Positions 1-11,218 of a stretch of DNA of 11,218 bases are shown here, in pieces. Positions within the stretch are counted from its first letter, which is position 1; each line of letters starts with the position of its first letter. Origin of the DNA: Candidatus Latescibacterota bacterium (GTDB taxonomy: Bacteria > JAAXHH01 > JABIQT01); contig JABIQT010000084.1 of assembly GCA_018667995.1 (NCBI GenBank), positions 1 to 11,218 on the forward strand. Reading direction: 5' to 3'. The translations under genes were made by a program, and so were the position numbers. The notes under the pieces were generated by a model. It was not told the origin of the DNA. It searched no databases and saw only the letters and a program-made list of their open reading frames with translations.

Positions 1-632
1 GGAATGTCGCCGAGGAAGTGGAGATCGAGCTCCGCTGCCGCCAACCGCCCACCACCATTGCCAAAAATATGTGTGCGCTCTCCAGAGCCCGGTGCGACAA
101 AATAGCTCATATTTTCAACTATACCGAGAATAGGGACTTTGAGGCGTTGAAACATAGTGATGCACCTGCGAACATCCGAAAGTGCAACCTGCTGAGGCGT
201 AGTGACTATGACCGCACCGGACAGGGGGGCGGCCTGCGCCAGGGCCAGTGACGCATCACCCGTACCCGGAGGCAAATCGATGAATAGATAATCCAACTCG
301 CCCCAGTCCACCTCGCCTATAAATCGCTTTACCATCTTACCCACCAGCGGGCCGCGATAGATGATAGCATCAGACTGTCCCGAGATGAATCCTACTGACA
401 CCAGTCGTACTCCGTGGCTCACCAGCGGTTTAATGAGCCCTTCATCATTCTGTTCGAGAGGGCCCTGGGCTCCCATCATTTGAGGGATGCTGGGACCATA
501 GATATCCGCATCAAGCAAACCGACAGCGGCGCCCTCTGCTGCCATAGAGGCGGCCAAATTGACACTGACTGTCGACTTCCCCACACCACCTTTTCCGCTG
601 GCTACAGCAATGAGTGCACATGATTCAAGCAC
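1..632 (-). CDS. mrp: Mrp/ApbC-family P-loop Fe-S carrier ATPase (3' end outside window)
   Basis: This is a cytoplasmic nucleotide-binding protein of the Mrp/ApbC/NBP35 family, which carries and transfers iron-sulfur clusters to apo-proteins. About 210 residues are visible and the C-terminus lies beyond the left edge. I see the deviant Walker A GKGGVGKST (residues 13-21), the family signature LLDADIYGPSIP (39-50), IDLPPGTGD (118-126), TPQQVALSD (145-153) and VENMSYF (172-178). The start is a GTG at 632-630, preceded by AGGG at 642-639 with 6-nt spacing; an in-frame stop lies just upstream (about 664-666) and the next Met is residue 30. The protein therefore begins at the P-loop and has no N-terminal MIP18/DUF59 domain. 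After VENMSYFV the usual CPxCG is replaced by APGSG (A180, S183), so the CxxC cluster ligand pair is absent. It follows an ErpA-like gene but a strong terminator separates them. The family call is secure; the activity is less certain. Confidence 0.93.
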   Translation of the reverse strand, partial: MLESCALIAVASGKGGVGKSTVSVNLAASMAAEGAAVGLLDADIYGPSIPQMMGAQGPLEQNDEGLIKPLVSHGVRLVSVGFISGQSDAIIYRGPLVGKMVKRFIGEVDWGELDYLFIDLPPGTGDASLALAQAAPLSGAVIVTTPQQVALSDVRRCITMFQRLKVPILGIVENMSYFVAPGSGERTHIFGNGGGRLAAAELDLHFLGDI

Positions 633-679
633 AAAAATCCCTGTCTCTGTGTAGTTTTTACACTAACTCAATTGGGTAT

Positions 680-716
680 AAAAAAACGGGGAGGCCGATG
701 CTACCAAGGCCTCCCC
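680..716 (-). terminator. Rho-independent terminator after the erpA-like gene
   Basis: Read on the minus strand, a perfect 9-bp GC-rich stem GGGGAGGCC / GGCCTCCCC (716-708 pairing with 696-688) encloses an 11-nt loop. A single G and a run of seven T (686-680) follow. It starts 13 bases after the stop codon of the ErpA-like gene and ends about 48 bases before the GTG of mrp, so it should end the erpA transcript and limit read-through into mrp. A small 5-bp hairpin (663-659 with 653-649) lies between it and the mrp ribosome binding site. Confidence 0.92.
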
Positions 717-729
717 AGAAATTCAGAAA

Positions 730-1053
730 CTACACGTGAAAGGATTCACCGCAACCACAAGTGCCTTTGGCATTGGGGTTATTGACTTTGAAGCCTGCCC
801 CCATCAACCCTTCAACGTAGTCCAACTCTGAGCCCATCAAATATATGGCGCTTTTCATGTCAACGAAGACCTTTACACCGTTTTCCTCAATGGTCTGATC
901 AGCCTCACCGGCTTCCTTATCAAAAGCGAGGCGATATTGAAAACCGGAACATCCACCGCCGGAAATCATCATGCGTAAACCGTGTTCTGGATTTCCCTGA
1001 TCGGTCAGAAGGGCTCGTATTTTATCTGCTGCTGCTTCAGTGACTGTTACCAT
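730..1053 (-). CDS. erpA: A-type iron-sulfur cluster carrier (ErpA/IscA family)
   Basis: This 107-residue cytoplasmic protein has the standard length of A-type carriers, which receive Fe-S clusters from a scaffold and pass them to client apo-proteins. The three ligand cysteines are present: C35 in SGGGCSGF, and C99 and C101 in GTCGCGESF near the C-terminus. The stretch SELDYVEGLMGAGFKVNNPNA just before the CGC motif is typical of the family and leans toward ErpA-like members, but ErpA, IscA and SufA are hard to separate by eye. The ATG at 1053 has a near-perfect Shine-Dalgarno AAGGAGG (1068-1062) with 8-nt spacing. A sigma70-like promoter lies upstream and a strong terminator downstream, so it can be expressed as a single gene between the cysteine desulfurase and mrp. 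Nothing in the protein looks abnormal. Confidence 0.95.
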   Translation of the reverse strand: MVTVTEAAADKIRALLTDQGNPEHGLRMMISGGGCSGFQYRLAFDKEAGEADQTIEENGVKVFVDMKSAIYLMGSELDYVEGLMGAGFKVNNPNAKGTCGCGESFHV

Positions 1054-1125
1054 GCGGAGTGCCTCCTTGAGTACTTCTATCTTCGCTGTCTGATATACGA
1101 TGTTTCAGCGCTCGGATTTGTCAGA

Positions 1126-1154
1126 TTAATAAGCATATTGATTGCCCGTGTCAA
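1126..1154 (-). promoter_or_regulatory. Sigma70-like promoter for the erpA-like gene
   Basis: On the minus strand a perfect -35 box TTGACA (1154-1149) is followed by a 17-bp spacer and a -10-like TATTAA (1131-1126, 4 of 6 consensus bases). Transcription would start near 1119, leaving a leader of about 65 bases before the ATG at 1053. The promoter sits in the 152-bp gap after the cysteine desulfurase stop codon. I looked for an IscR-like operator around it and saw no convincing one. Prediction from sequence only. Confidence 0.55.
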
Positions 1155-1205
1155 CTACTAACAATAACCAGCCACCTTTTTTTGAGGCGCAGCCCTACTT
1201 ATCTT

Positions 1206-2330
1206 CTAACTGGCCGGGTAATTAGGCAACAAAGACCGCAACCTGCCAACGGTCTCTGCTATGGTCGCCACAACGTAATCGACCTCCTCGATCGTGTTTC
1301 CCCGTCCGAGTCCAAACCTTAGCGCGCTCTCTGCCAGGGCTCGATCTCGACCCAGTGCCATGAGAACATATGAAGGGTCAATTGTGGTCCGCGAGGTACA
1401 TGCAGATCCCGATGACACGGCAATATCCCGAAGACTCAGGAGTAGCGATCCTCCCTCTATCCCGGAAAAACAGACATTGAGGTTTCCGGGAAGACGTCGG
1501 ACAGGGTGACCATTCAGTTTGATATCGTCAACCGAGGCGCTCAGACTGCGATAGAGATGATCACGGAGCGAGACCAAACGCTCCCCTTCGACATCCATAA
1601 CTGCTTCGCAAATCTCACATGCGAGTCCCAGGCCCACAATCCCGGGCAGGTTGAGCAGAGACTCATCACCGAGCGGCGATAGCATCTTAATGGCAGGATC
1701 CGATTCACGAACATAAAGCGCACCTATCCCTTTTGGACCGTACATTTTATGCGCGGAAATCGAGAGTAGATCCACCCCGAGCTCATTCACCGAAACCGGT
1801 ATCTTCCCTACGGCCTGAACGGCATCCGTGTGAAGCAGCAATCCCTTGTCTCTGGCAATCTTTCCTATCGCGTTAACCGGGTTTATGCTGCCAATCTCGT
1901 TGTTGCCATATGCAATCGTAATTAGAATAGTGTTCTCATTGATTGCGTGGGAGACATCCTCTGGAGAAACCATGCCGTCGGAGTCCACCGGCAGATAGGT
2001 GACAACAAAGCCCTGCTGCTCCAGACTTGTACAACAATCAAGAATTGCCTTATGCTCCACCTGAGAGGTAATGATGTGATTTCCTCTCTCTCGACGCGCA
2101 AGCGCGATACCCTTGACCGCGAGATTATCGGACTCGGTCGCCCCCGATGTAAATCGGATTTCGGAGGGATCCGCACCTATCAGGCGTGCTATTCGTTCGC
2201 GGCTCACGGCAACGGCGTCTCGGCACTGCCCTTCGGACTTTGATCCCAGGTAGAAAGGCTTGATCGCATCGAGAATCGTGGGATCCAATGGCGTTGTTGC
2301 GTGATGATCCATATAGATAGGTAACTTCAA
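1206..2330 (-). CDS. iscS: Class I cysteine desulfurase (IscS/NifS type) lacking two active-site loops
   Basis: This PLP enzyme of the aminotransferase class V fold would take sulfur from L-cysteine as a persulfide for Fe-S assembly. Visible landmarks are MDHHATTPLDP (7-17), TSGATESDN (61-69), H93 in VEHKAILD, NNEIG (143-147), D169 and Q172 in HTDAVQAVGK, the PLP lysine K195 in SAHKMYGPKG, and catalytic C311 in SSGSACTS. The length is 374 residues against roughly 385-405 for the family. Against E. coli IscS as I remember it, about 9-11 residues are missing after residue 31, where FGNPSS-H-FG should be, and about 7 near 220-227, where GGGHERG-RSGT should be. Both gaps are in frame and the rest is well conserved. 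The start is a TTG at 2330 with TGAGG (2342-2338) 7 nt upstream; an internal ATG (residue 7) would cut into the conserved N-terminus. It begins 56 bases after the propeller lipoprotein gene with no visible terminator. Family certain; activity in doubt. Confidence 0.93.
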   Translation of the reverse strand: MKLPIYMDHHATTPLDPTILDAIKPFYLGSKSEGQCRDAVAVSRERIARLIGADPSEIRFTSGATESDNLAVKGIALARRERGNHIITSQVEHKAILDCCTSLEQQGFVVTYLPVDSDGMVSPEDVSHAINENTILITIAYGNNEIGSINPVNAIGKIARDKGLLLHTDAVQAVGKIPVSVNELGVDLLSISAHKMYGPKGIGALYVRESDPAIKMLSPLGDESLLNLPGIVGLGLACEICEAVMDVEGERLVSLRDHLYRSLSASVDDIKLNGHPVRRLPGNLNVCFSGIEGGSLLLSLRDIAVSSGSACTSRTTIDPSYVLMALGRDRALAESALRFGLGRGNTIEEVDYVVATIAETVGRLRSLLPNYPAS

Positions 2331-2337
2331 ACTACAG

Positions 2338-2342
2338 CCTCA
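2338..2342 (-). promoter_or_regulatory. Ribosome binding site supporting a TTG start
   Basis: TGAGG on the minus strand lies 7 bases before TTG at 2330-2328. With the conserved N-terminal sequence that follows (K-L-P-I-Y-M-D), it supports the TTG over the downstream ATG as the start of the cysteine desulfurase. Confidence 0.6.
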
Positions 2343-2386
2343 TTGGATATGGATACAGGAATCTTGGTGATTTGGGCAGTGTTTAT

Positions 2387-3730
2387 TCAGGGAATGAATG
2401 TGACGCTACGTGTCCCCTGATCCACTGCGATCGTGGTCGGTACTAATAATCCCGGAAATCGTGCGATCTCTACACCGTCATTAGAGTATTTCAGAAGGCC
2501 GGTAAGTGCCAGATCTGAGACCCAGACATTGCCGTTGGTGTCGTCAATCGTTACGTCGGAAGGTACAACCAGTCCCGACAATATCTTATGAAATGATTGG
2601 CTCTGTAGTACATCATATAGCCCTGAAACGGAATCCGAGATACGAAGAATAGAGGCTGTGCCGGAATCAATGATCCAACAATCGTTGGTCAATACACTAT
2701 AGGCCAGCGAGATAGGTTCGGTAAAACCGGTTATAGTTGCGGAGACACTTCCGTCTGGATCCAGCCTGAAGACTGATGCTCTCGAGGAGTCGATTACCCA
2801 GCAAGCCCCGCTGGATGCGTTCACGGCAATCTCGGATGGTAATCCCATATTCTCCACGGTCGAGAGGCGTACACTTAGATTGGATATGAGCGATACCGTA
2901 TGGGCCCCAGAATCTCCGATCCAGGCAGAACCTGAATTTCCGACTATCGCGAGGGCCGTCGGCTTAACAAAATCTGTTAACCTGAAAATTGGGATGCCCT
3001 TCTCGGTCGCTCTAACGACCAGGGCATCTCCTTCGCCGGTTCCCTCATCGGCGACCCAGACCGACCCATCACTGGGATCGACCCCAACAGGCCCTGGCAG
3101 CCTAAAGCCCGTCACGACCGTAGAACGAGTACCGGCGGCGGTGTACCTAACAGCGATTCCTCCCTGGCCCGCTCCACCAAATTCTGTCGTCAACCAAGCA
3201 GCCCCGTCTCTTGGATCAATCGCTATGTGACGGGCACCAAAGATTGATACCACTGAATGAGAAATGGCCCGAGCATCGGAAGATACCTTGAGGACGAATC
3301 CCAGTCCTTCATCAATAACCCAGCAGGATTCAGGCCCCGGAGAGCTGAAGACCCCATTTGAAATGTCGCTCTCCAATGGGTTCTGCCGATCCCCTATCAA
3401 CACAGAGAATTTATACTCATAGGTTTCGCCATTCAGGACGTTTTCGTCAACGAACTCATTGGGCGGTGGCGTTCCGAAAACATCCGTCGTAGTTACACTG
3501 CCGCTCCCATCGGTTCGATACAGTCTATATCCAACCACATCTGATAGGAAAACGCGATTCCACGATAATCCGACACTCTCGTGATTACCGAGTGACCTCA
3601 GGTTCTGAGGACGACCGCTGGTTAACGCGTTGCCTGCATCAAGTGGATTGCGTCGCTCTCTATCATCAGGGTCACATCCGCTCATCAATATCATGCCGAT
3701 AACGACCGTAATGTATAACCTATAATTCAT
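2387..3730 (-). CDS. Lipoprotein with Fn3-like domain and seven-bladed NHL/Vgb-like beta-propeller
   Basis: This is a 447-residue envelope lipoprotein of unknown role. The signal peptide (1-18) ends in LMSG before lipidated C19; Asp follows at +2, which in E. coli favours inner-membrane retention but may not in this phylum. A short linker carries NPLD (28-31), a motif common at the mature N-terminus of FCB-group lipoproteins. Residues about 39-128 look like a fibronectin type III domain (SVGLSWNRV, VGYRLYRTDG, YEYKFSV). The rest is a propeller. Strand-like 'xxW(V/I)xD' motifs place Trp at 137, 179, 225, 270, 311, 352 and 403, spaced 41-51 residues, so seven blades with the last strand (SVTFIP) possibly closing the ring. 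Such propellers bind proteins, glycans or peptidoglycan-linked partners; no catalytic residues are evident. The ATG has AGGA (3741-3738) 7 nt upstream and lies 12 bases after the PEGA gene stop, so the genes are probably co-transcribed. Fold call fairly sure; function unknown. Confidence 0.85.
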   Translation of the reverse strand: MNYRLYITVVIGMILMSGCDPDDRERRNPLDAGNALTSGRPQNLRSLGNHESVGLSWNRVFLSDVVGYRLYRTDGSGSVTTTDVFGTPPPNEFVDENVLNGETYEYKFSVLIGDRQNPLESDISNGVFSSPGPESCWVIDEGLGFVLKVSSDARAISHSVVSIFGARHIAIDPRDGAAWLTTEFGGAGQGGIAVRYTAAGTRSTVVTGFRLPGPVGVDPSDGSVWVADEGTGEGDALVVRATEKGIPIFRLTDFVKPTALAIVGNSGSAWIGDSGAHTVSLISNLSVRLSTVENMGLPSEIAVNASSGACWVIDSSRASVFRLDPDGSVSATITGFTEPISLAYSVLTNDCWIIDSGTASILRISDSVSGLYDVLQSQSFHKILSGLVVPSDVTIDDTNGNVWVSDLALTGLLKYSNDGVEIARFPGLLVPTTIAVDQGTRSVTFIP

Positions 3731-3742
3731 GCTGCGGTCCTA

Positions 3743-4597
3743 TTATCTGGAATGAAATGCGCGGGACAAAAAGAAATAGAATGCGCCCGCAAAGTTGATC
3801 TGTGCCGCGACCGCGTATGTACTCGTCCGACTGTCCTGACTCGCCGCTCGTTGGTAAAACCCCTCTGATCGTGTTGGGTCCGCCGTGCGTAGATAGTTCG
3901 AGTAGGCTTGATCCGCTTTTCTGTCAGAATTTAGAGCCATACCCGTAAACAGTAGTCCGAGACCCAGCGTAGCATAACCTAATTTCTTACTCAGCCTGTG
4001 CCTGCCCGTAACCATATCTCCAAAAGTGCTCGCATCAGATTGGGGCGATCGTTTTACGGACGCCGACTCTATTGCCAGCGTTACGTCAAAAACCTGTTGG
4101 AGCGTGTCTCGTACAATGAACGCCTGAAGCGTCTCTTGAAAACCAGATTTGCGCAAAGCAATGGTGTAAGGTCCGGGCGTGAGATTTGCGAGCCGAATGG
4201 GCGTAGTTCCGAGCAGCAAACTGTTCATGTAGACCTCAGCTCCGAACGGATCGGAACGAACAACAACAGGCCCCACGAATACCGCATGGGCGGTAGTGGC
4301 CTCTTCTGCCGACACGGTTACTTCACGCTGCCAGTCCAGCACATCCCAGGATGACGTTTCGGGCCTTGTGATCCGAAATAGATAACTGCCAGACGGTAGG
4401 CTATAGTCAATCAGAGGCGTACGTCCGACTAACCTGTCGTCGATAAATAAAGGCAAATCCGAGGGATCTGACGTGATAGATACGACACCGCGTACCCTCT
4501 GTGCCGAGACAGTGTCAGACCAGAGAGCCGCAGATAGGACGATAACCGTGAGCCCGAATGTGACTGTTCTGTCGAATAGAACTCGAAAGACCTTCAT
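3743..4597 (-). CDS. PEGA-domain membrane protein with two PEGA repeats
   Basis: This 284-residue exported protein has a signal peptide (1-32, hydrophobic 11-26, cleavage after V-S-A) and two successive PEGA-type domains. The first is at about 38-106 (ITSDPSDLPLFIDDRLVGRTP, then LPSGSYLFRI) and the second at about 109-175 (VRSDPFGAEVYMNSLLLGTTP, then LTPGPYTIALRKSGF). Hydrophobic segments at about 206-221 and 261-278 flank a polar segment rich in Asp, Arg and Tyr; they may be membrane helices or buried helices. PEGA domains resemble beta-sandwich modules found in surface and wall-associated proteins; no enzyme activity is expected. The frame is open 165 bases further upstream into the preceding gene, but M at 4597 is chosen because the signal peptide starts there and it falls 13 bases after the PQQ gene stop. 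Its ribosome site is weak (GGA, 7 nt spacing). It is tightly packed between two propeller lipoprotein genes, which suggests a shared complex. Confidence 0.82.
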   Translation of the reverse strand: MKVFRVLFDRTVTFGLTVIVLSAALWSDTVSAQRVRGVVSITSDPSDLPLFIDDRLVGRTPLIDYSLPSGSYLFRITRPETSSWDVLDWQREVTVSAEEATTAHAVFVGPVVVRSDPFGAEVYMNSLLLGTTPIRLANLTPGPYTIALRKSGFQETLQAFIVRDTLQQVFDVTLAIESASVKRSPQSDASTFGDMVTGRHRLSKKLGYATLGLGLLFTGMALNSDRKADQAYSNYLRTADPTRSEGFYQRAASQDSRTSTYAVAAQINFAGAFYFFLSRAFHSR

Positions 4598-4610
4598 CTT
4601 GTAATCCAAA

Positions 4611-5720
4611 TCAGTTCCGCAACGCGGAAAATGCGTAGATGTGTCGATCGTCCGATCCCACCATGAGTACATCCTGCACCACAAATGGCGCAACATTGAT
4701 GCTGTCCTGAGTCTCATACTTCCAGGTAACGAGTCCAGTCTCAGCGTCAAGAGCATAAACATGTCGATCTGTGGATACTACATATACGTAACCATTTAGG
4801 GTCAAGGGCGGCGCCACCACAATACCTTCAGTCTGAAATCTCCATAGTTCCCTGCCGGTAAAAGCGTCCAGGCAGTACAGGTTTCGATCATTCGAGCCCT
4901 GGTAGACCTTCCCATTGTCCACGATGGGAGAACAGTAGAGGCTACCCCCCGTGGTAAACTTCCAACGCAATTCTCCGCTCGAGGCGTCGAGGCAATAGAG
5001 GGATTGATCATAGCTTGGGATGTACACGGCATCAGCCGACACTGCCGGTGCCCTTGTCACGGTTCCATCTGTTCTGTAAGTCCAAAGTTCATCGCCATTA
5101 TCCGCGTCAAGAGCGTAGATCCGGTTATCATCAGATCCGACGTACACTCGGCCATCCCGAACCACCGGTGTGGTCCGAACCTGGCGTCCAACGCGATGTT
5201 CCCAAATCGTCTCACCGCTGTCGGCGGCCAGCGCATAGGCAATCCCGTTCTCGGAACCCGTGTAAACAACGCTGTCCACAAGCGTCGGCGCCGACAAGCC
5301 GTTTAGCAATTTTCGACGCCAAATCGTCTCTTTTTTTCGGGTATCAAAGGCAACGAATTCACGCCATTCCCGCGGTGTCTGTCCAACTACGGAGAGAAAA
5401 AGCGTATCACCACCCAAGGCGGGGGTGACTGCCCCGGTACCGTTTATTTCGTCCGTAAACTCAGCGACCAGCCCGTTCTCCGCATTCATGAGATAGATCT
5501 TATTATTCGACATAGGTACGAACATCGTCGTCCCACGAACAGCTGGAGGAGCCAGGATCGGCCCCTTTAACTTGGTCCTCCAAATCAAAGACAGCGGGGG
5601 CTGAATAGCTCGCGGGACTTCGCCACGTTCGAGAACGCCCGCGCCATTCAACGCAATGTAGGGCTTCCCGCAAGATGCAAGCGGCAGCAGAAACACCAGT
5701 AGGCCCCATAGTTTACTCAT
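4611..5720 (-). CDS. PQQ-type eight-bladed beta-propeller lipoprotein, BamB-like
   Basis: This is a 369-residue lipoprotein. Its signal peptide ends in the lipobox LASC with lipidated C17 and Gly at +2. The mature part is built of PQQ-like blades of about 40 residues with the pattern (I/V)Y-x-LD-x-x-(S/T/N)G-x-x-x-W. I count seven complete copies plus a closing strand (IYAFSA), pairing with the first W (LIWRTKL), which gives eight blades as in BamB. Members of this fold include BamB, which assists the outer-membrane barrel assembly factor BamA, and quinoprotein dehydrogenases; no PQQ or heme ligands are seen, so a scaffold or chaperone role is more likely. An in-frame ATG exists 9 bases upstream (5729), but AGGA (5732-5729) has proper 8-nt spacing only to the ATG at 5720. 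It lies 90 bp downstream of the Omp85-like barrel fusion and 13 bp before the PEGA gene. BamB orthology is not proven; the neighbouring barrel makes an analogous role attractive. Confidence 0.88.
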   Translation of the reverse strand: MSKLWGLLVFLLPLASCGKPYIALNGAGVLERGEVPRAIQPPLSLIWRTKLKGPILAPPAVRGTTMFVPMSNNKIYLMNAENGLVAEFTDEINGTGAVTPALGGDTLFLSVVGQTPREWREFVAFDTRKKETIWRRKLLNGLSAPTLVDSVVYTGSENGIAYALAADSGETIWEHRVGRQVRTTPVVRDGRVYVGSDDNRIYALDADNGDELWTYRTDGTVTRAPAVSADAVYIPSYDQSLYCLDASSGELRWKFTTGGSLYCSPIVDNGKVYQGSNDRNLYCLDAFTGRELWRFQTEGIVVAPPLTLNGYVYVVSTDRHVYALDAETGLVTWKYETQDSINVAPFVVQDVLMVGSDDRHIYAFSALRN

Positions 5721-5728
5721 TGGGATCA

Positions 5729-5732
5729 TCCT
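5729..5732 (-). promoter_or_regulatory. Ribosome binding site deciding the PQQ lipoprotein start
   Basis: AGGA on the minus strand overlaps the upstream ATG (5729-5727), so it cannot serve that codon, but it is 8 nt from the ATG at 5720-5718. This favours the downstream start of the BamB-like gene. Confidence 0.55.
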
Positions 5733-5810
5733 AAATTGATTACATGTATCATCGATGTCAGAGAAATGTTCGAGACGATAGTCATAATTAGAGGCATCAT
5801 GCTATGTTTC

Positions 5811-8642
5811 TCAAAAGTCAGGACCAAACCAGAATGTGAACCGAATGCCATCTTCCAGCGATCGAAAGTTATTCGATACACGTTTTGAGAAGTCGAATCG
5901 TAGAATCAGAGGACCTCCCAGTCCCACGCGTACGCCCCCGCCAAAACTGCCTATAACGTCCTGGTAGTCATCGTCAAACCAGACATTGCCAGAATCCAGA
6001 AACAATGCTCCCTGTATACGCGAAAAACTCATGGCGCCGAATGGAAATCCCAATGCAAGAAAGTTCATCAGAGGAAAACGCAGTTCCTGATTGAAAAGCA
6101 GCATTCGATTTCCCTGAAGAGACCGGAATCCGTAGCCTCGGAAGTCCCAACTGCCCCCAAGACGAATGATCTGCGGTTCTTCTCCCCAACTACCGATACC
6201 CAGGCCTCGAGACGCATAGGTCAAATGCCTGGCAAATCTGAAGTATCTGCGATAGTCGGCCACAAGCGTTGTCGCGAAGGACTCGCCTCTGCCCACATCG
6301 GTCAGATGCGTCAAGCCAAACTGAAATCCTTCACCGTCAACAGGGCCAGTCGGGCCCCACATAACCGTGTCCCGAACGTAGGCTATGTAATTCGTCACAA
6401 GGTGAGACTGTCGATCTGCGTTGCTCGTCGCGAAAAGTCGGGTCTTGTCCGAATAAGTGTATCCAACATTTCCATCCAGGCGCGAGAATTTTGAAAAGGG
6501 ATACGAAAACAGAAAAATTGAGCCGAATCGCCGCTCGTCGAAAAGGAAATTACTATTGTCCGCGAAGTTACCATTAAGGTGAAAGACCCCATATCCATAG
6601 TTAATACGGTGCGAGAGATTCATCCGTGACACGAAGAAATTGAAGCTTTTAAGAAAGTCTCCGGTGGTCTGCGTGCTGTTGCTGACGAGGAAATTATAGT
6701 AATGGTCACCCAGCATGTCACTCAAACTGAATAACACACCGCCCCCCAAAGCGATATCACTGGAGGTTGGCGCTGCAATCAGTCCTCCCTGTGCGAGATC
6801 GAGACCGTATCTCCTCTCATAGGGCGCCGTAGTCAGACCATCTGATAGTTTAATTCTGTCCGGTGACCATTTCGCGAGTCGGGCTCTTGGGGGTGGTATT
6901 TGAACGGTCTCCAACGAGTCCGGTAGAGCGATCCGACACACCTGGAATTGGAATCCCTCGAAGCCTGTGAAGAGGATGGACCGGCTATCTGTAGTCCAAC
7001 TCGGATCCATCACGCCAGTGGCTACCTTCGTTAACCGATGGATCCTTCTTTCCTGATCCATCAGGTACAGATCCACACCAGTATCTCTGTCCGAAGTGAA
7101 TGCGAGCCATTTTCCGTCGGGGGACCAAGCCGGTGCGAGATCATTGTGGGCACCCTCAGTTATTCCATTGATGGCACCGGATTCGGTCTCCAGAGAATAG
7201 AGATTATGCCATCCGTTGGTGTCGCCCCCTTCGGCGCGATCGGAGCTGAAAACAATCGCCGTACCGTCGGGAGACCATTCCGGCTCACGATCCTCGTATA
7301 TGTCATTGGTCAACTTCTGAAGAGTTTTGGTGCCTCTATCCACCACATAGAGATCCGAAACACCTGCCCGGTTCTGGCCGGAGAAGACAATTCGCGTACC
7401 ATCTGGAGACCACGATGGCGACGAGATACCGACAATTTCATCAAAATCGAACCGCTCAATCTGCCGCCGCTCCGCAATATTCCAGAGATAAATGACATCC
7501 TGTGCCTGGCTCTCTGAAACAAAGGCCAGCTCGCGTTTCTTGTTGACCGCCATCTGGGTTCGAAGCAGATGAAATGATTCAAATTCCGGAGAGCGGCCGC
7601 CGCGCACCAGAAGCTGAACACCCTTTTCTGTGCCTTCTAGAGGTGCCCAGACTATATCTTCGTACCCGTCTCTTGTGCTCAGGAAGACCAATCCCTCGTC
7701 AACCGTCGAATCCAGCGCCGCCGGCACCGAAACCGGCTTTATATTAATCCCCCTAGTGGTTAAAGGCGGCGCGACTTTGAAGGGCATGTCGGTCCGCTCG
7801 AGCAGGGGGTAATATTGTTTCCTGAGACCGTATACCCATTCGTCACTCACCGACTTGAGACTCTTCCCAAGTGAGATTTCAAAAATCTCTTTAAACGTGG
7901 TACCGCGCCACCAATTCTCCAGGATTAACTCGATAGCATCATCGCCGTACTTCTCTTCTATGAATTTAAGAAATGACTGACCTTCCTTGTACATCAGAAA
8001 ACTACCGAAAATCCGGTTGATATTTGGTATGTCCACCAGATATCCCGAGAGCACAGCGTCTCGAATAAACATATCCGCTTCTGAGCCCCATCCCTCGGAC
8101 CAGTGTTCGGCCAATCCCTCGGTAAACCAGAGAGGAGGCGCCAGGCGTAGACCTTTTCGGTGCTTCTTCAGAACCGATTTGATTTTCTCAATGGTAAAAA
8201 CGTGAACCAACTCGTGCCTCAAAACCGAATCAAATTCATGGTAGGATCCGATATTGGGCATCACAACCCGCCCCTTAAGAAACTCCGTAAATGCACCTAC
8301 GGATTCTGGTAGTAGAACGGGAACCGTATTGGTCTCTCTAAAATAGTGATGGGTGCTGTACAGGATAAGCGGAAGGCGACGGTGAATCGAAAGGCTGAAC
8401 TGAGATTCCAGGGCACGGTAGCTTCGTTCGGCCGAAGCGGCAGCTATTTCAGCGAGATCTTTCTCTTCTGGGAAATAGTATAGATCGATATGCTCGGTCT
8501 GCATGACCTGCCAATCGAAATTGGTGTACTGTACCTTATTGCGACCAAAGAAGTTCAGATACTGCGCGTCCGCCCGGTCATATCGGATCAGAATACACAT
8601 CAGTATCAGTATGAGGTTCAGGCAGCACTGCGGCAATCGCAT
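5811..8642 (-). CDS. Fusion: MA-clan zinc peptidase, TolB/PD40 propeller, Omp85-like outer-membrane barrel
   Basis: This 943-residue three-part envelope protein starts with a signal peptide (1-26, cleavage after A-D-A). Residues about 40-270 form a gluzincin-like peptidase: HELVH at 143-147 supplies two zinc-ligand histidines and the general-base Glu, and WFTEGLAEH (172-180) supplies the likely third ligand E175. Residues about 300-590 hold a TolB-like propeller; four clear PD40 repeats have Trp at 411, 456, 506 and 549 (WSPDG three times, then WTTDS), with weaker copies before them. From about 610 to the end the sequence alternates in beta-barrel fashion with glycines and aromatics. FRGY at 834-837 in a GGSWDFRGYGF context matches the conserved loop-6 (V/I)RG(F/Y) motif of Omp85/BamA proteins, and the last residue is Phe as in outer-membrane barrels. 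No POTRA domains are apparent; the peptidase and propeller occupy their place. The ATG has CAGGA 7 nt upstream. Natural substrate unknown; a role in protein insertion, secretion or quality control is inferred. Confidence 0.88.
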   Translation of the reverse strand: MRLPQCCLNLILILMCILIRYDRADAQYLNFFGRNKVQYTNFDWQVMQTEHIDLYYFPEEKDLAEIAAASAERSYRALESQFSLSIHRRLPLILYSTHHYFRETNTVPVLLPESVGAFTEFLKGRVVMPNIGSYHEFDSVLRHELVHVFTIEKIKSVLKKHRKGLRLAPPLWFTEGLAEHWSEGWGSEADMFIRDAVLSGYLVDIPNINRIFGSFLMYKEGQSFLKFIEEKYGDDAIELILENWWRGTTFKEIFEISLGKSLKSVSDEWVYGLRKQYYPLLERTDMPFKVAPPLTTRGINIKPVSVPAALDSTVDEGLVFLSTRDGYEDIVWAPLEGTEKGVQLLVRGGRSPEFESFHLLRTQMAVNKKRELAFVSESQAQDVIYLWNIAERRQIERFDFDEIVGISSPSWSPDGTRIVFSGQNRAGVSDLYVVDRGTKTLQKLTNDIYEDREPEWSPDGTAIVFSSDRAEGGDTNGWHNLYSLETESGAINGITEGAHNDLAPAWSPDGKWLAFTSDRDTGVDLYLMDQERRIHRLTKVATGVMDPSWTTDSRSILFTGFEGFQFQVCRIALPDSLETVQIPPPRARLAKWSPDRIKLSDGLTTAPYERRYGLDLAQGGLIAAPTSSDIALGGGVLFSLSDMLGDHYYNFLVSNSTQTTGDFLKSFNFFVSRMNLSHRINYGYGVFHLNGNFADNSNFLFDERRFGSIFLFSYPFSKFSRLDGNVGYTYSDKTRLFATSNADRQSHLVTNYIAYVRDTVMWGPTGPVDGEGFQFGLTHLTDVGRGESFATTLVADYRRYFRFARHLTYASRGLGIGSWGEEPQIIRLGGSWDFRGYGFRSLQGNRMLLFNQELRFPLMNFLALGFPFGAMSFSRIQGALFLDSGNVWFDDDYQDVIGSFGGGVRVGLGGPLILRFDFSKRVSNNFRSLEDGIRFTFWFGPDF

Positions 8643-8805
8643 CTATAATTCCTGTGGGGTGCGCAAGTCTCTACATCAGGCGTGCCGCACTTAGTTGGGA
8701 CAATTGGATACTCGGGTAACGCTCGTCGAGTGGATTAGGTTCACTGATTTTCATTTGACATAGCCCCACTCCTGTATGGTGGAACTTGGGCCCACTGGCA
8801 CGACA

Positions 8806-10893
8806 TCAACGTGTGAGCAGCATTTTTTTCGCACTGACATTTGGCCCTGCATGAATCCTGTAGATATACAGGCCACTCGGAAGCGTCCGGCCATTCTGAT
8901 CCCGGCCATCCCACGACTCCTGATATCTGCCTGCGCCCCGTAGCTCATCGACTAGAACCCGGACTCTTTGTCCAAGAATGTTGAAGACGGTCAACTTCAC
9001 CAGTCCTGCATGTCGAAGATCGAAGGCAATTACTGTCGACGGGTTAAAGGGATTGGGGTAGTTCTGAGCCAATGAGAACTGCAGCGTTGAATTCGAGGAC
9101 GGAGTAAAAACTATTGAAGCAGACGGCGATGCGATACCGACTGGTGAACCGACAGGGCCCAGAGCGTGCAGTATATAGTCATAGTTCTGGCCCGAGACGG
9201 CGGTCGTATCCACGTAGAAGTAGGTCCGCGGAGACGCCGAATGAAGACTACCGCTGGCCGGGAGTGGCGTAGGCGTGACTATGCTGACGTTACCGTTCAG
9301 TTTCCTCGAAACACGCCAACTATGGATATTCAGCTCAAATGCGGTAGACCATTCCAGCAGCACACCGTCGGAGTCATTGGAAACAGTATAGTCGCTTATC
9401 TCCGTGTTAGGAACGGTGGCCAGTGCGTCCCTCGCATTAGCCAATCCGTACCCTAACAAGGTATCCGGAAGAGCTGCTTGACCGCCTGTGCTTTGTAGTG
9501 CACTGATAATCTGATTCGGCGTCCAATCTGGCTGTGCCTCGAGTAGCAGAGCAACCAAACCAGCGGTTATCGGAGTCGAAAAGGACGTACCGTTGATACG
9601 CAGATATCCGGTTGTGCTGGCAGGATTAACGGCACGTACCGCTACCCCCATGGCCACCACATCCGGTTTGATGCGGCCGTCATATGTCGGCCCTTTGGAG
9701 CTGAAAGCTGCCCGTCTACCGGTGGAATCTACTGCCCCCACTGTCACGATCCCCTCGGCGTCCGCAGGCGCAATCATTTTCTGCCAACCTGACTGACCTT
9801 CATTGCCTATGGCATTCACGACCAAAATGCCGCGAGAAGCTGCCGCTGCTGCGGCAATAGTGGTGACTGCAGTCTGTCCGTCCATATCCGAATACTGATA
9901 CCAGGAATTGTAGCCGAGCGAACTGCTGATGATGTCGGCACCCAGACTGTCCGCCCATTCCGCGGCTTGCACCCACCAGTCTTCTTCCACCTGCTGTTCG
10001 AATGAGATAGTCTCTGTCTTGGCAAGAATGAAGTGTGCGTTGTACGCGGGGCCGATCAACTCACCAGGCATGTATCCCCCTATGGTCGATAGTGTTTCAG
10101 TGCCGTGGTTGTGCTGCCCCGGAAAATCCTGACTGAGGTCATCTGCCGTGCCATCGTCCCCATTGATGAAATCCTTCTCCGCGATCACCCTTGTACGCAG
10201 TGAATCAAAAGCCACATGGTCCAACTTGAACCCCGTATCCAACATGGCAATGGTAACACCACGTCCCGATAGACCTAGTCTGTGAAGAAATGGTACTTGC
10301 ACCTGCTCAAGCTGTGTAAGGGAGGAACCGTAGTTCAGAACGTCCGAGGAGGCGACAGTGGTTGGTTTTGGCGATACCAATTCTGGTGTGCCCTCGATAA
10401 CGGGCCGACTGAAGGTGGATACCGGTGTGATTCTATACACATAGGCCAGATCAGCAATAGATTCAATGGCTTCCTCAGTCGCCAAAACGCTAACTGCATT
10501 GAGCCACCGCGATCGACCGAGCAGTTCTCCACCGAGACTCAGCGTACCTCGTATGTATGGCTCGTGAAGAGGAATATCCAGGAAGTCTACCGGACCAGAA
10601 GAACGCCGAAGTCTACGTCGATTCAGTGCTCTCAATCCCAGTGCTCCCTCGGCTGTTAGCAAGGCTGAGCTGTAAGCTCTTTCTGTGAAAATTCCCTTAT
10701 CGGTAAAGAAAATCCAAAATTTGAGGTCAGCGTCATTGGAGCTTCGCCGTAATTCAGATATTGCCCGCTCATCAATTTTTCCGGACACCGGAGCGCGCTT
10801 TTTCCAGGGAACATGGTCGGGCACTTGGGCGAGAGCCGGCGTCAACCACATGAGAGCCACAACGCACACAACAACCTTATCACGCAGGATCAT
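8806..10893 (-). CDS. Secreted subtilisin-like (S8) serine protease with type IX sorting domain
   Basis: This 695-residue exported protease has a signal peptide (1-22, hydrophobic VVVCVVALMWL, cleavage after A-L-A). A prodomain-like region (about 50-170) contains KFWIFFTDKG, an Arg-rich stretch and SRWLNAVSV; it probably folds the enzyme and is removed. The S8 catalytic domain spans about 205-490 with D219 (AMLDTG), H263 (NHGTE), oxyanion N364 (IGNEG) and S437 (NGTSFSTP). A beta-rich linker (about 505-605) follows. Residues 611-695 form a type IX secretion/FlgD-like C-terminal domain that starts with NYPNPFNPST and ends in GLYIYRI...KKMLLTR, normally recognised at the outer membrane and removed or anchored. 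The frame is open to a TTG/ATG at 10956/10953, but M at 10893 gives a compact signal peptide and is preferred; no good ribosome site precedes either. It is 163 bp upstream of the barrel fusion gene. No sorting machinery is visible in the window. Likely extracellular proteolysis. Confidence 0.92.
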   Translation of the reverse strand: MILRDKVVVCVVALMWLTPALAQVPDHVPWKKRAPVSGKIDERAISELRRSSNDADLKFWIFFTDKGIFTERAYSSALLTAEGALGLRALNRRRLRRSSGPVDFLDIPLHEPYIRGTLSLGGELLGRSRWLNAVSVLATEEAIESIADLAYVYRITPVSTFSRPVIEGTPELVSPKPTTVASSDVLNYGSSLTQLEQVQVPFLHRLGLSGRGVTIAMLDTGFKLDHVAFDSLRTRVIAEKDFINGDDGTADDLSQDFPGQHNHGTETLSTIGGYMPGELIGPAYNAHFILAKTETISFEQQVEEDWWVQAAEWADSLGADIISSSLGYNSWYQYSDMDGQTAVTTIAAAAAASRGILVVNAIGNEGQSGWQKMIAPADAEGIVTVGAVDSTGRRAAFSSKGPTYDGRIKPDVVAMGVAVRAVNPASTTGYLRINGTSFSTPITAGLVALLLEAQPDWTPNQIISALQSTGGQAALPDTLLGYGLANARDALATVPNTEISDYTVSNDSDGVLLEWSTAFELNIHSWRVSRKLNGNVSIVTPTPLPASGSLHSASPRTYFYVDTTAVSGQNYDYILHALGPVGSPVGIASPSASIVFTPSSNSTLQFSLAQNYPNPFNPSTVIAFDLRHAGLVKLTVFNILGQRVRVLVDELRGAGRYQESWDGRDQNGRTLPSGLYIYRIHAGPNVSAKKMLLTR

Positions 10894-11081
10894 ATATACA
10901 GGGCCGATCTTCGAAGGAATATTGAAATTGCCCGCGGGGCCACGCAGAATCATCAATACTACGTTTCAGGAAGCCCGAGAGCATGCACTACAATACATCC
11001 GGCTACCTGGTCTGGTTCCATGAAAATCGAAGGCGAACTCCGAGGCTGGTTTCTGAGAGGTCAATCAGCTGAAGCGTTTAT

Positions 11082-11218
11082 TCAAACGGAAGTAGTGCGG
11101 GAAAGCGGTTGGACCTGGAAGTCATCATCAGGTGACTTGCTTGGAGTGCGGTTTCGAACTGCCAGCTGACGAAGTGTCCACATGGCAGGAACTGCTAGTG
11201 CGGTCATGAATATCAGTA
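11082..11218 (-). CDS. Possible C-terminal end of an unrecognised membrane protein (partial)
   Basis: On the minus strand one frame is open from the right edge to a TGA at 11084-11082, giving 44 residues. It begins with a hydrophobic stretch (LIFMTALAVPAMWTL), followed by basic RQLAVRNR and a polar tail with DDD, a composition typical of the end of a transmembrane segment with a cytoplasmic tail. It has the same direction as every other gene here. The evidence is weak: the frame is short, no family is recognised, and a plus-strand frame is open over the same bases. If real, it ends 188 bp before the protease start. I see no terminator after it. Confidence 0.3.
   Translation of the reverse strand, partial: LIFMTALAVPAMWTLRQLAVRNRTPSKSPDDDFQVQPLSRTTSV

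What the first reader, a model, noticed from the sequence alone, without database searches (positions are those of the whole stretch)
5811..8642. Zinc peptidase, TolB-like propeller and Omp85-type barrel in one chain
A HELVH...EGLAEH peptidase and PD40 repeats are joined to a C-terminal barrel carrying the FRGY loop-6 motif of BamA/TamA/TpsB proteins, with no POTRA domains seen. The periplasmic part of this Omp85-like protein would then be a protease plus a propeller. This suggests a barrel that processes or surveys what it inserts or exports. Fusions of this general type may occur in uncultured FCB genomes annotated only as PD40 or surface-antigen proteins; I know of no functional description.
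Basis: partly seen in the sequence, partly recalled or inferred. Interest (0 to 1): 0.62.

Follow-up and report, generated by a model that had tools for sequence, protein, structure and literature searches.

The report
Outer-membrane barrel with built-in protease
This gene encodes an outer-membrane assembly-type barrel (Omp85) whose periplasmic part is a zinc protease plus a TolB-like propeller instead of the usual POTRA domains; the same three-part protein occurs in many uncultured bacterial phyla, usually beside a BamB-like lipoprotein gene, which suggests a little-studied outer-membrane assembly and quality-control machine.

Summary
The minus-strand ORF 5811-8642 (943 aa) is signal peptide + gluzincin zinc peptidase + TolB-like propeller + 16-strand Omp85 barrel, with no POTRA. 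AlphaFold gives pLDDT 88.8 and pTM 0.87, with FRGY in loop 6 between strands 11 and 12. Among 80 relatives from about a dozen mostly FCB-group phyla, every zinc ligand is conserved wherever the region is present (H143/E144/H147 80/80, E175 81/81), and the peptidase is the best-conserved domain. The barrel's lock pair (R835, D883; aligned with E. coli BamA R661 and D740) is kept in 79/80. Propeller-Omp85 fusions were listed in 2014 as the uncharacterised 'WD40-Omp85' subfamily, but that paper's main text mentions no peptidase or BamB partner. Most likely it is an auxiliary outer-membrane protein assembly/quality-control station with protease and barrel in one chain. Architecture is near certain; the mechanism is inferred. 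Rivals: an exporter that processes cargo, or a barrel-anchored periplasmic protease.

The parts
8565..8642 (-). Sec signal peptide (residues 1-26, likely cut at ADA|QY); start codon ATG at 8642
   Evidence: Hydrophobic N-terminus read from the sequence; low-confidence tail in the AF2 model; relatives show the same ...A-Q then (Y)FGxNKVQY pattern. Cleavage site is inference.
7773..8564 (-). Zinc peptidase domain (residues 27-290): conserved FGxNKVQY entry motif, 143-HELVH-147, 172-WFTEGLAEH-180; ligands H143, H147, E175, catalytic E144
   Evidence: Ligands 80/80, 80/80, 81/81 and E144 80/80; domain model pLDDT 86.2; nearest folds M9 collagenases Z 16.1 and M1 aminopeptidases Z 13-14.5; profile hit to collagenase E 0.0013
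6900..7758 (-). TolB-like beta-propeller (residues about 295-580), PD40 repeats
   Evidence: PD40 4e-26, TIGR02800 6e-40; VIA-align to E. coli TolB Z 27.8, rmsd 2.3, 242 residues aligned over 315-577
5814..6824 (-). 16-strand Omp85-type barrel (residues 607-943); loop 6 820-845 with 829-GGSWDFRGY-837; strand 13 with 881-FLDSG-885; C-terminal aromatic residue
   Evidence: AF2 strands; VIA-align to D. radiodurans BamA 8xnb Z 22.7, rmsd 4.2, 298 residues; PDB profile hit to F. nucleatum BamA E 2.7e-9; R835 aligned with E. coli BamA R661 and D883 with D740
4611..5729 (-). Partner: BamB-like PQQ-type propeller lipoprotein (372 aa, lipobox LASC, Cys20), 81 nt downstream
   Evidence: TIGR03300 E 2.7e-50, below the family cut-off; directly downstream of the barrel gene in 51 of 73 testable loci; Cys20 column at least 90% conserved; only TIGR03300 match found in the genome
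3743..4762 (-). Less constant neighbour: PEGA-domain protein (annotated start overlaps the BamB-like gene; the true start is probably further in)
   Evidence: PF08308 6e-18; at +2 on the same strand in 23 of 65 testable loci

Best explanation
The gene makes an outer-membrane protein of the Omp85 superfamily, in the propeller-fused (WD40-Omp85) branch, in which the POTRA domains are replaced by a gluzincin zinc protease and a TolB-like propeller. It most likely acts with the BamB-like lipoprotein encoded next to it as an auxiliary outer-membrane protein assembly and quality-control station, beside the ordinary POTRA-bearing Omp85 proteins of the cell. Proposed steps: (1) Sec export, signal cleavage and insertion of the barrel, leaving protease and propeller in the periplasm (inferred from anatomy and from PlpD's topology); (2) the propeller and the BamB-like lipoprotein bind nascent or misfolded substrate (inferred); (3) the barrel, which keeps the loop-6 lock, engages substrate at its lateral seam (inferred); (4) the tethered protease cuts substrates that stall or are misassembled, much as the separate metallopeptidase BepA does on the E. 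coli BAM complex (inferred). Shown here: the architecture, the intact catalytic and barrel signatures, the breadth of the family and the conserved gene pairing. Not shown: any activity, topology or substrate.
For: 16-strand barrel with RG motif in loop 6 and the R835/D883 lock pair in 79/80 sequences, aligned with BamA R661/D740, so the barrel is not drifting as a mere anchor. Zinc ligands and catalytic Glu invariant in every sequence with the region; the peptidase is the best-conserved domain, median identity 47% against 34% (propeller) and 38% (barrel). BamB-like lipoprotein immediately downstream in 51 of 73 loci; inside the core clade 51 of 58, with three of the seven exceptions being contig ends and the other four one clade, i.e. 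one apparent loss. The partner's nearest start codon overlaps the stop in 28 of 52 loci. In this genome and in 6 of 8 others the best BamB-family match is directly next to this gene; in G024 it is on the same contig with one S9-peptidase gene between; in G001 contigs are broken. Separate POTRA-bearing Omp85 proteins exist in the genome, so this is an extra machine. Precedents: BepA acts on BAM-bound stalled substrates (PMC8423444; PMC13067283); PlpD shows an enzyme domain fused to an Omp85 barrel staying periplasmic (PMC11116518).
Against: No biochemical data. No POTRA, although POTRA-mediated handling is how other Omp85 insertases and BamB are known to work, so BamB would have to bind elsewhere. 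The BamB-like protein scores below the BamB family cut-off and PQQ-type propellers are generic. PlpD shows that Omp85 barrels can be reused for functions other than assembly. The main Gemmatimonadota branch and the long-form clade have no BamB-like gene adjacent, so the pairing is not universal. The window's own gene pair does not overlap (81 nt gap).
Confidence: 0.5

Rival explanations
1. Export-and-process machine: the barrel translocates or surface-displays specific cargo (as TpsB/FhaC-type barrels do) and the fused protease trims the cargo as it passes.
For: Omp85 barrels include true translocases. In the window and its closest relatives a secreted S8 subtilase with a type IX-like sorting tail lies just upstream.
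Against: The subtilase neighbour was found at -1 in only 3 loci in the neighbourhood survey; no cargo gene recurs next to the wider family. The constant partner is BamB-like, not a secreted protein.
Confidence: 0.2
2. Barrel-anchored periplasmic protease: the barrel only tethers and shields a protease that degrades periplasmic or imported peptides; no insertase or translocase role.
For: The peptidase is the best-conserved domain and its nearest folds are M9 collagenases and M1 aminopeptidases. Some propeller+peptidase relatives in the phylum seem to lack the barrel, e.g. a 655-aa frame at G000:C455.
Against: A pure anchor need not keep the loop-6 RG and strand-13 D at 79/80 nor a BamB-like partner; the barrel is itself better conserved than the propeller.
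Confidence: 0.2
3. Type Vd-like autotransporter: the peptidase and propeller are moved to the cell surface through their own barrel.
For: Formal analogy to early models of PlpD.
Against: For PlpD itself the enzyme domain was found to be periplasmic (PMC11116518). About 580 folded residues with no passenger signature would have to pass a 16-strand barrel.
Confidence: 0.05

Closest known systems
WD40-Omp85 subfamily (Heinz and Lithgow 2014, PMC4104836)
   Same: N-terminal WD40/TolB-like propeller fused to an Omp85 barrel, no POTRA; uncharacterised; the authors already compared it to a BamA-BamB fusion.
   Different: Their main text describes only the propeller; no peptidase, no gene partner.
BamA plus BepA of the E. 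coli BAM system
   Same: Omp85 barrel working with a BamB-type lipoprotein and a zinc metallopeptidase at the outer membrane.
   Different: There the protease is a separate M48 protein with TPR repeats and BamA has five POTRAs; here protease, propeller and barrel are one chain without POTRA and the protease is a different, M9/M1-like gluzincin.
PlpD / FplA (patatin-Omp85)
   Same: Enzyme domain N-terminal to an Omp85 barrel in one chain.
   Different: Patatin lipase plus one POTRA; no propeller, no protease.
'Metallo' Omp85 subfamily (PF00149; Heinz and Lithgow 2014)
   Same: Name and idea: Omp85 barrel with an N-terminal metalloenzyme, suggested to act in proteolytic quality control.
   Different: PF00149 is the calcineurin-like metallophosphoesterase family (own knowledge), not a zincin; the protein here carries a genuine HExxH...E zincin fold.
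TolB
   Same: Propeller fold, Z 27.8.
   Different: TolB is a free periplasmic protein with another N-terminal domain and binds Pal; Pal or colicin binding was not tested here.

Membership tests
Omp85/TpsB superfamily | C-terminal 16-stranded barrel | tested here: met
   AF2 strands 612-941 count 16; BamA 8xnb Z 22.7 over 612-943
Omp85/TpsB superfamily | (V/I/F)RG(F/Y) motif in loop 6 with its strand-13 partner (FxDxG) | tested here: met
   FRGY 834-837 between strands 11 and 12; R835 79/80, D883 79/80; aligned with BamA R661 and D740
Omp85/TpsB superfamily | Recognised by barrel profile models | tested here: met
   NF047779 3e-8 (sub-threshold) for this protein; PF01103 in 26 of 50 family members at 0.001 or better; PDB BamA 2.7e-9 with the family profile
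Omp85/TpsB superfamily | At least one POTRA domain (usual, but not required in the 2014 barrel-based definition) | tested here: not met
   No POTRA match in the protein or among the families listed for 50 members; POTRA found in control proteins L139 and L140
WD40-Omp85 subfamily | WD40-type propeller, closest in structure to TolB, fused N-terminal to an Omp85 barrel | tested here: met
   TolB Z 27.8, barrel as above
WD40-Omp85 subfamily | Sequence grouping with the published members | not testable with these tools
   Member list is in supplementary tables that cannot be opened here
Gluzincin (clan MA(E)) metallopeptidase | HExxH plus downstream Glu ligand in a zincin fold | tested here: met
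   H143/E144/H147 80/80, E175 81/81; M9 collagenase Z 16.1
Gluzincin (clan MA(E)) metallopeptidase | Zinc-dependent proteolytic activity | not testable with these tools
   Needs protein biochemistry
M48 peptidases (BepA, LoiP, YcaL) | M48 domain | tested here: not met
   No M48 family among Pfam matches up to E 1; nearest folds are M9 and M1
BamB (for the downstream partner) | PQQ-type propeller lipoprotein | tested here: met
   TIGR03300 matched by 34 of 34 partners; lipobox Cys at least 90%
BamB (for the downstream partner) | Score above the BamB equivalog cut-off | tested here: not met
   171 bits against 285; generic PQQ propellers also match
PlpD-type patatin-Omp85 | Patatin domain plus POTRA | tested here: not met
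   Neither among the Pfam matches

The most novel reading that the evidence does not exclude
A POTRA-less outer-membrane assembly machine in which foldase barrel, substrate-binding propeller and proteolytic quality control are one polypeptide, working with a dedicated BamB-type lipoprotein and running in parallel to BAM across the FCB group and its neighbours.
Probability: 0.35. Interest if true: 0.85.

Novelty: new variant of a known kind. Interest (0 to 1): 0.64.

Why it matters
How diderm bacteria get rid of outer-membrane proteins that stall on the assembly machine is unclear even in E. coli, where the protease (BepA) is separate. Here nature has fused a zinc protease to the Omp85 barrel and kept its active site intact across about a dozen phyla, so the link between insertion and proteolysis becomes testable with single point mutants. 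[quoted passage not shown]

Tried and rejected
Plus-strand reading of the coordinates: full of stops. Assembly chimera: rejected by 80 loci with the same single ORF. Degenerate barrel used as an anchor: disfavoured by the conserved lock residues, not excluded. Sigma-70 promoter and terminator scan over 2300-11218: promoter-like count no higher than in shuffles, terminator-like count only slightly higher, uninformative. Upstream subtilase as a general partner: only 3 loci at -1. Weak barrel-profile hits in other genomes: five of those checked (L187, L188, L190, L191, L192) still carry an N-terminal HExxH domain, while L189 looks POTRA-bearing by eye. Barrel tree: the core 31 fused barrels are separated from POTRA-type barrels with 99% SH-aLRT support, but two very remote rows fall near the POTRA group on long branches, so a single origin of the fusion is not settled. 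Literature searches for the peptidase-propeller-Omp85 combination found nothing beyond the 2014 survey and passing mentions.

Full report
OBSERVATION. The gene lies on the minus strand, 5811-8642, 943 codons, ATG start. The plus strand of the same interval has many stops. Pfam and NCBIfam see PD40 repeats (4e-26) and TolB (6e-40), a sub-threshold Peptidase_MA_2 (3.3e-5) and a sub-threshold Omp85_fam (3e-8). Across 50 family members (this one included) the same Pfam library gives PD40 in 49, Peptidase_MA_2 in 46 and Omp85 PF01103 in 26 at 0.001 or better; no POTRA family is listed. The same library finds POTRA at once in two other Omp85 proteins of this genome.

STRUCTURE. AlphaFold2 on an alignment of 50 sequences gave mean pLDDT 88.8 and pTM 0.87. 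The order is helical signal, alpha/beta peptidase (about 45-290), all-beta propeller (about 300-580), then 16 barrel strands from 612 to 941. FRGY 834-837 sits in the loop between strands 11 and 12, which is loop 6. Second-look structural alignment gives TolB Z 27.8 (rmsd 2.3, 242 residues) and Deinococcus BamA Z 22.7 (rmsd 4.2, 298 residues), with SAM50 and E. coli BamA close behind. The peptidase modelled alone (pLDDT 86.2) is nearest to M9 collagenases (Z 16.1) and M1 aminopeptidases (Z 13-14.5), in agreement with a profile hit to collagenase at E 0.0013. The spacing H147 to E175 is 28 residues.

FAMILY. They come from records labelled Zixibacteria, Calditrichota, KSB1, Ignavibacteria, Bacteroidota including Rhodothermales, Gemmatimonadota, Neomarinimicrobiota, Eisenbacteria, Fermentibacteria, Glassbacteria and WOR-3. 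Each is a single ORF. In the alignment H143, E144 and H147 are 80/80, E175 81/81, G829 and G830 80/80, R835 79/80, D883 79/80. Median identity to the window protein is 47% in the peptidase, 34% in the propeller and 38% in the barrel. All 16 held genomes of the window's phylum have the peptidase. The order contains two forms, the short one (this gene) and a longer one (about 1,050-1,200 aa) with a low-complexity insert before the barrel; this genome has both. Very remote barrel relatives (L187, L188, L190) also have an N-terminal HExxH domain.

BARREL FUNCTION SIGNATURES. Profile alignment of the barrel family with the E. coli BamA barrel (E 3.8e-6) pairs R835 with R661 and D883 with D740. From established knowledge these two BamA residues form the loop-6 to strand-13 contact typical of Omp85 barrels. 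Their near-invariance argues for a working Omp85 barrel. The closest solved sequence is F. nucleatum BamA (E 2.7e-9).

GENE PARTNER. Clustering of neighbouring genes showed one family directly downstream on the same strand in 53 loci: a PQQ-type propeller protein of the BamB family; a PEGA protein follows at +2 in 23. Of 73 loci with at least 1 kb downstream, 51 have the BamB-like gene at +1. On a tree the BamB-like neighbour is found in 51 of the 58 rows of the core clade; three of the seven exceptions are contig ends (465, 104 and 8 nt left) and the other four form one clade. The long-form clade lacks it. In 28 of 52 loci the nearest usable start overlaps the barrel gene's stop (for example TAATG), the arrangement of translational coupling. 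The lipobox cysteine is at least 90% conserved. All 34 partners scanned match TIGR03300; the window's own one scores under its cut-off (171 against 285 bits), so 'BamB-like' is the correct wording. In this genome the only TIGR03300 matches found are in this window, next to the barrel gene. Eight further genomes were checked: in six the best match is adjacent, in G024 it is on the same contig with one S9-peptidase gene between, and in G001 contigs are broken.

MECHANISM. The most economical reading is an auxiliary outer-membrane protein assembly and quality-control station: barrel for substrate engagement at its seam, TolB-like propeller and BamB-like lipoprotein as substrate-handling surfaces, zinc protease for stalled or misfolded clients. 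Functional precedents are BepA, which either promotes assembly of BAM-bound substrate or degrades it (PMC8423444), and the other zinc proteases linked to BAM (PMC13067283). A topological precedent is PlpD, whose enzyme domain stays periplasmic (PMC11116518). What is shown: architecture, signatures, breadth, gene pairing. What is inferred: periplasmic topology, protease activity, client type, interaction with the BamB-like protein. Rivals are an export-and-process machine and a barrel-anchored general protease; both remain open.

KNOWN OR NEW. Propeller-Omp85 fusions were described as WD40-Omp85, one of ten subfamilies, in 2014 (PMC4104836), and the 2024 PlpD paper still lists the WD40 and 'metalloprotease' subfamilies as not well characterised. 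The 2014 main text has no occurrence of 'peptidase', and its 'Metallo' class rests on PF00149, a phosphoesterase family by my own knowledge. I found no paper in the held library that names the peptidase or the BamB-like partner. This is therefore a new, much better defined variant of a known kind, not a categorically new system.

Noticed in passing
window 8806-10956 (-): Upstream S8 subtilase with a C-terminal FlgD-Ig/Por_Secre_tail sorting domain, suggesting a type IX-like secretion route in this lineage; this neighbour is limited to the window's closest relatives.
   Followed up: partly
window 2387-3730 (-): NHL-repeat lipoprotein-like protein at the end of the same-strand gene run; also present in relative L043.
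   Followed up: partly
L055:4599-6587 (G000:C929): Long-form paralogue of the same peptidase-propeller family in the same genome, downstream of a TsaD-like gene; the long form is present in every genome held of the phylum and lacks the BamB-like neighbour.
   Followed up: partly
L141:1474-3147 (G000:C813) and L142:532-2121 (G000:C236): Two further Omp85 barrels without detected POTRA in the same genome, one with an N-terminal DUF4252 domain and a partial DUF5686 match, the other with no recognised N-terminal domain.
   Followed up: partly
L187:1485-6068 (+): A 1528-aa, very divergent relative in another lineage: HEGTH motif near the N-terminus and an Omp85-like barrel with FRGF, but no PD40 match.
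   Followed up: partly
G000:C455 (about 3003-4595, +): A 655-aa frame with weak matches to the peptidase and the propeller but apparently no barrel: a possible stand-alone version.
   Followed up: no
L064 and other Bacteroidota/Ignavibacteria loci, 1-5 genes upstream: Recurring upstream genes that look (by eye) like a PtsI-type phosphotransferase enzyme, a polyprenyl synthetase and a type 2 isopentenyl-diphosphate isomerase.
   Followed up: no
window 3-2330 (-): Fe-S cluster genes (Mrp-type ATPase, A-type carrier, IscS-type cysteine desulfurase) next to the envelope gene run; Mrp follows the NHL gene in relative L043 too.
   Followed up: no
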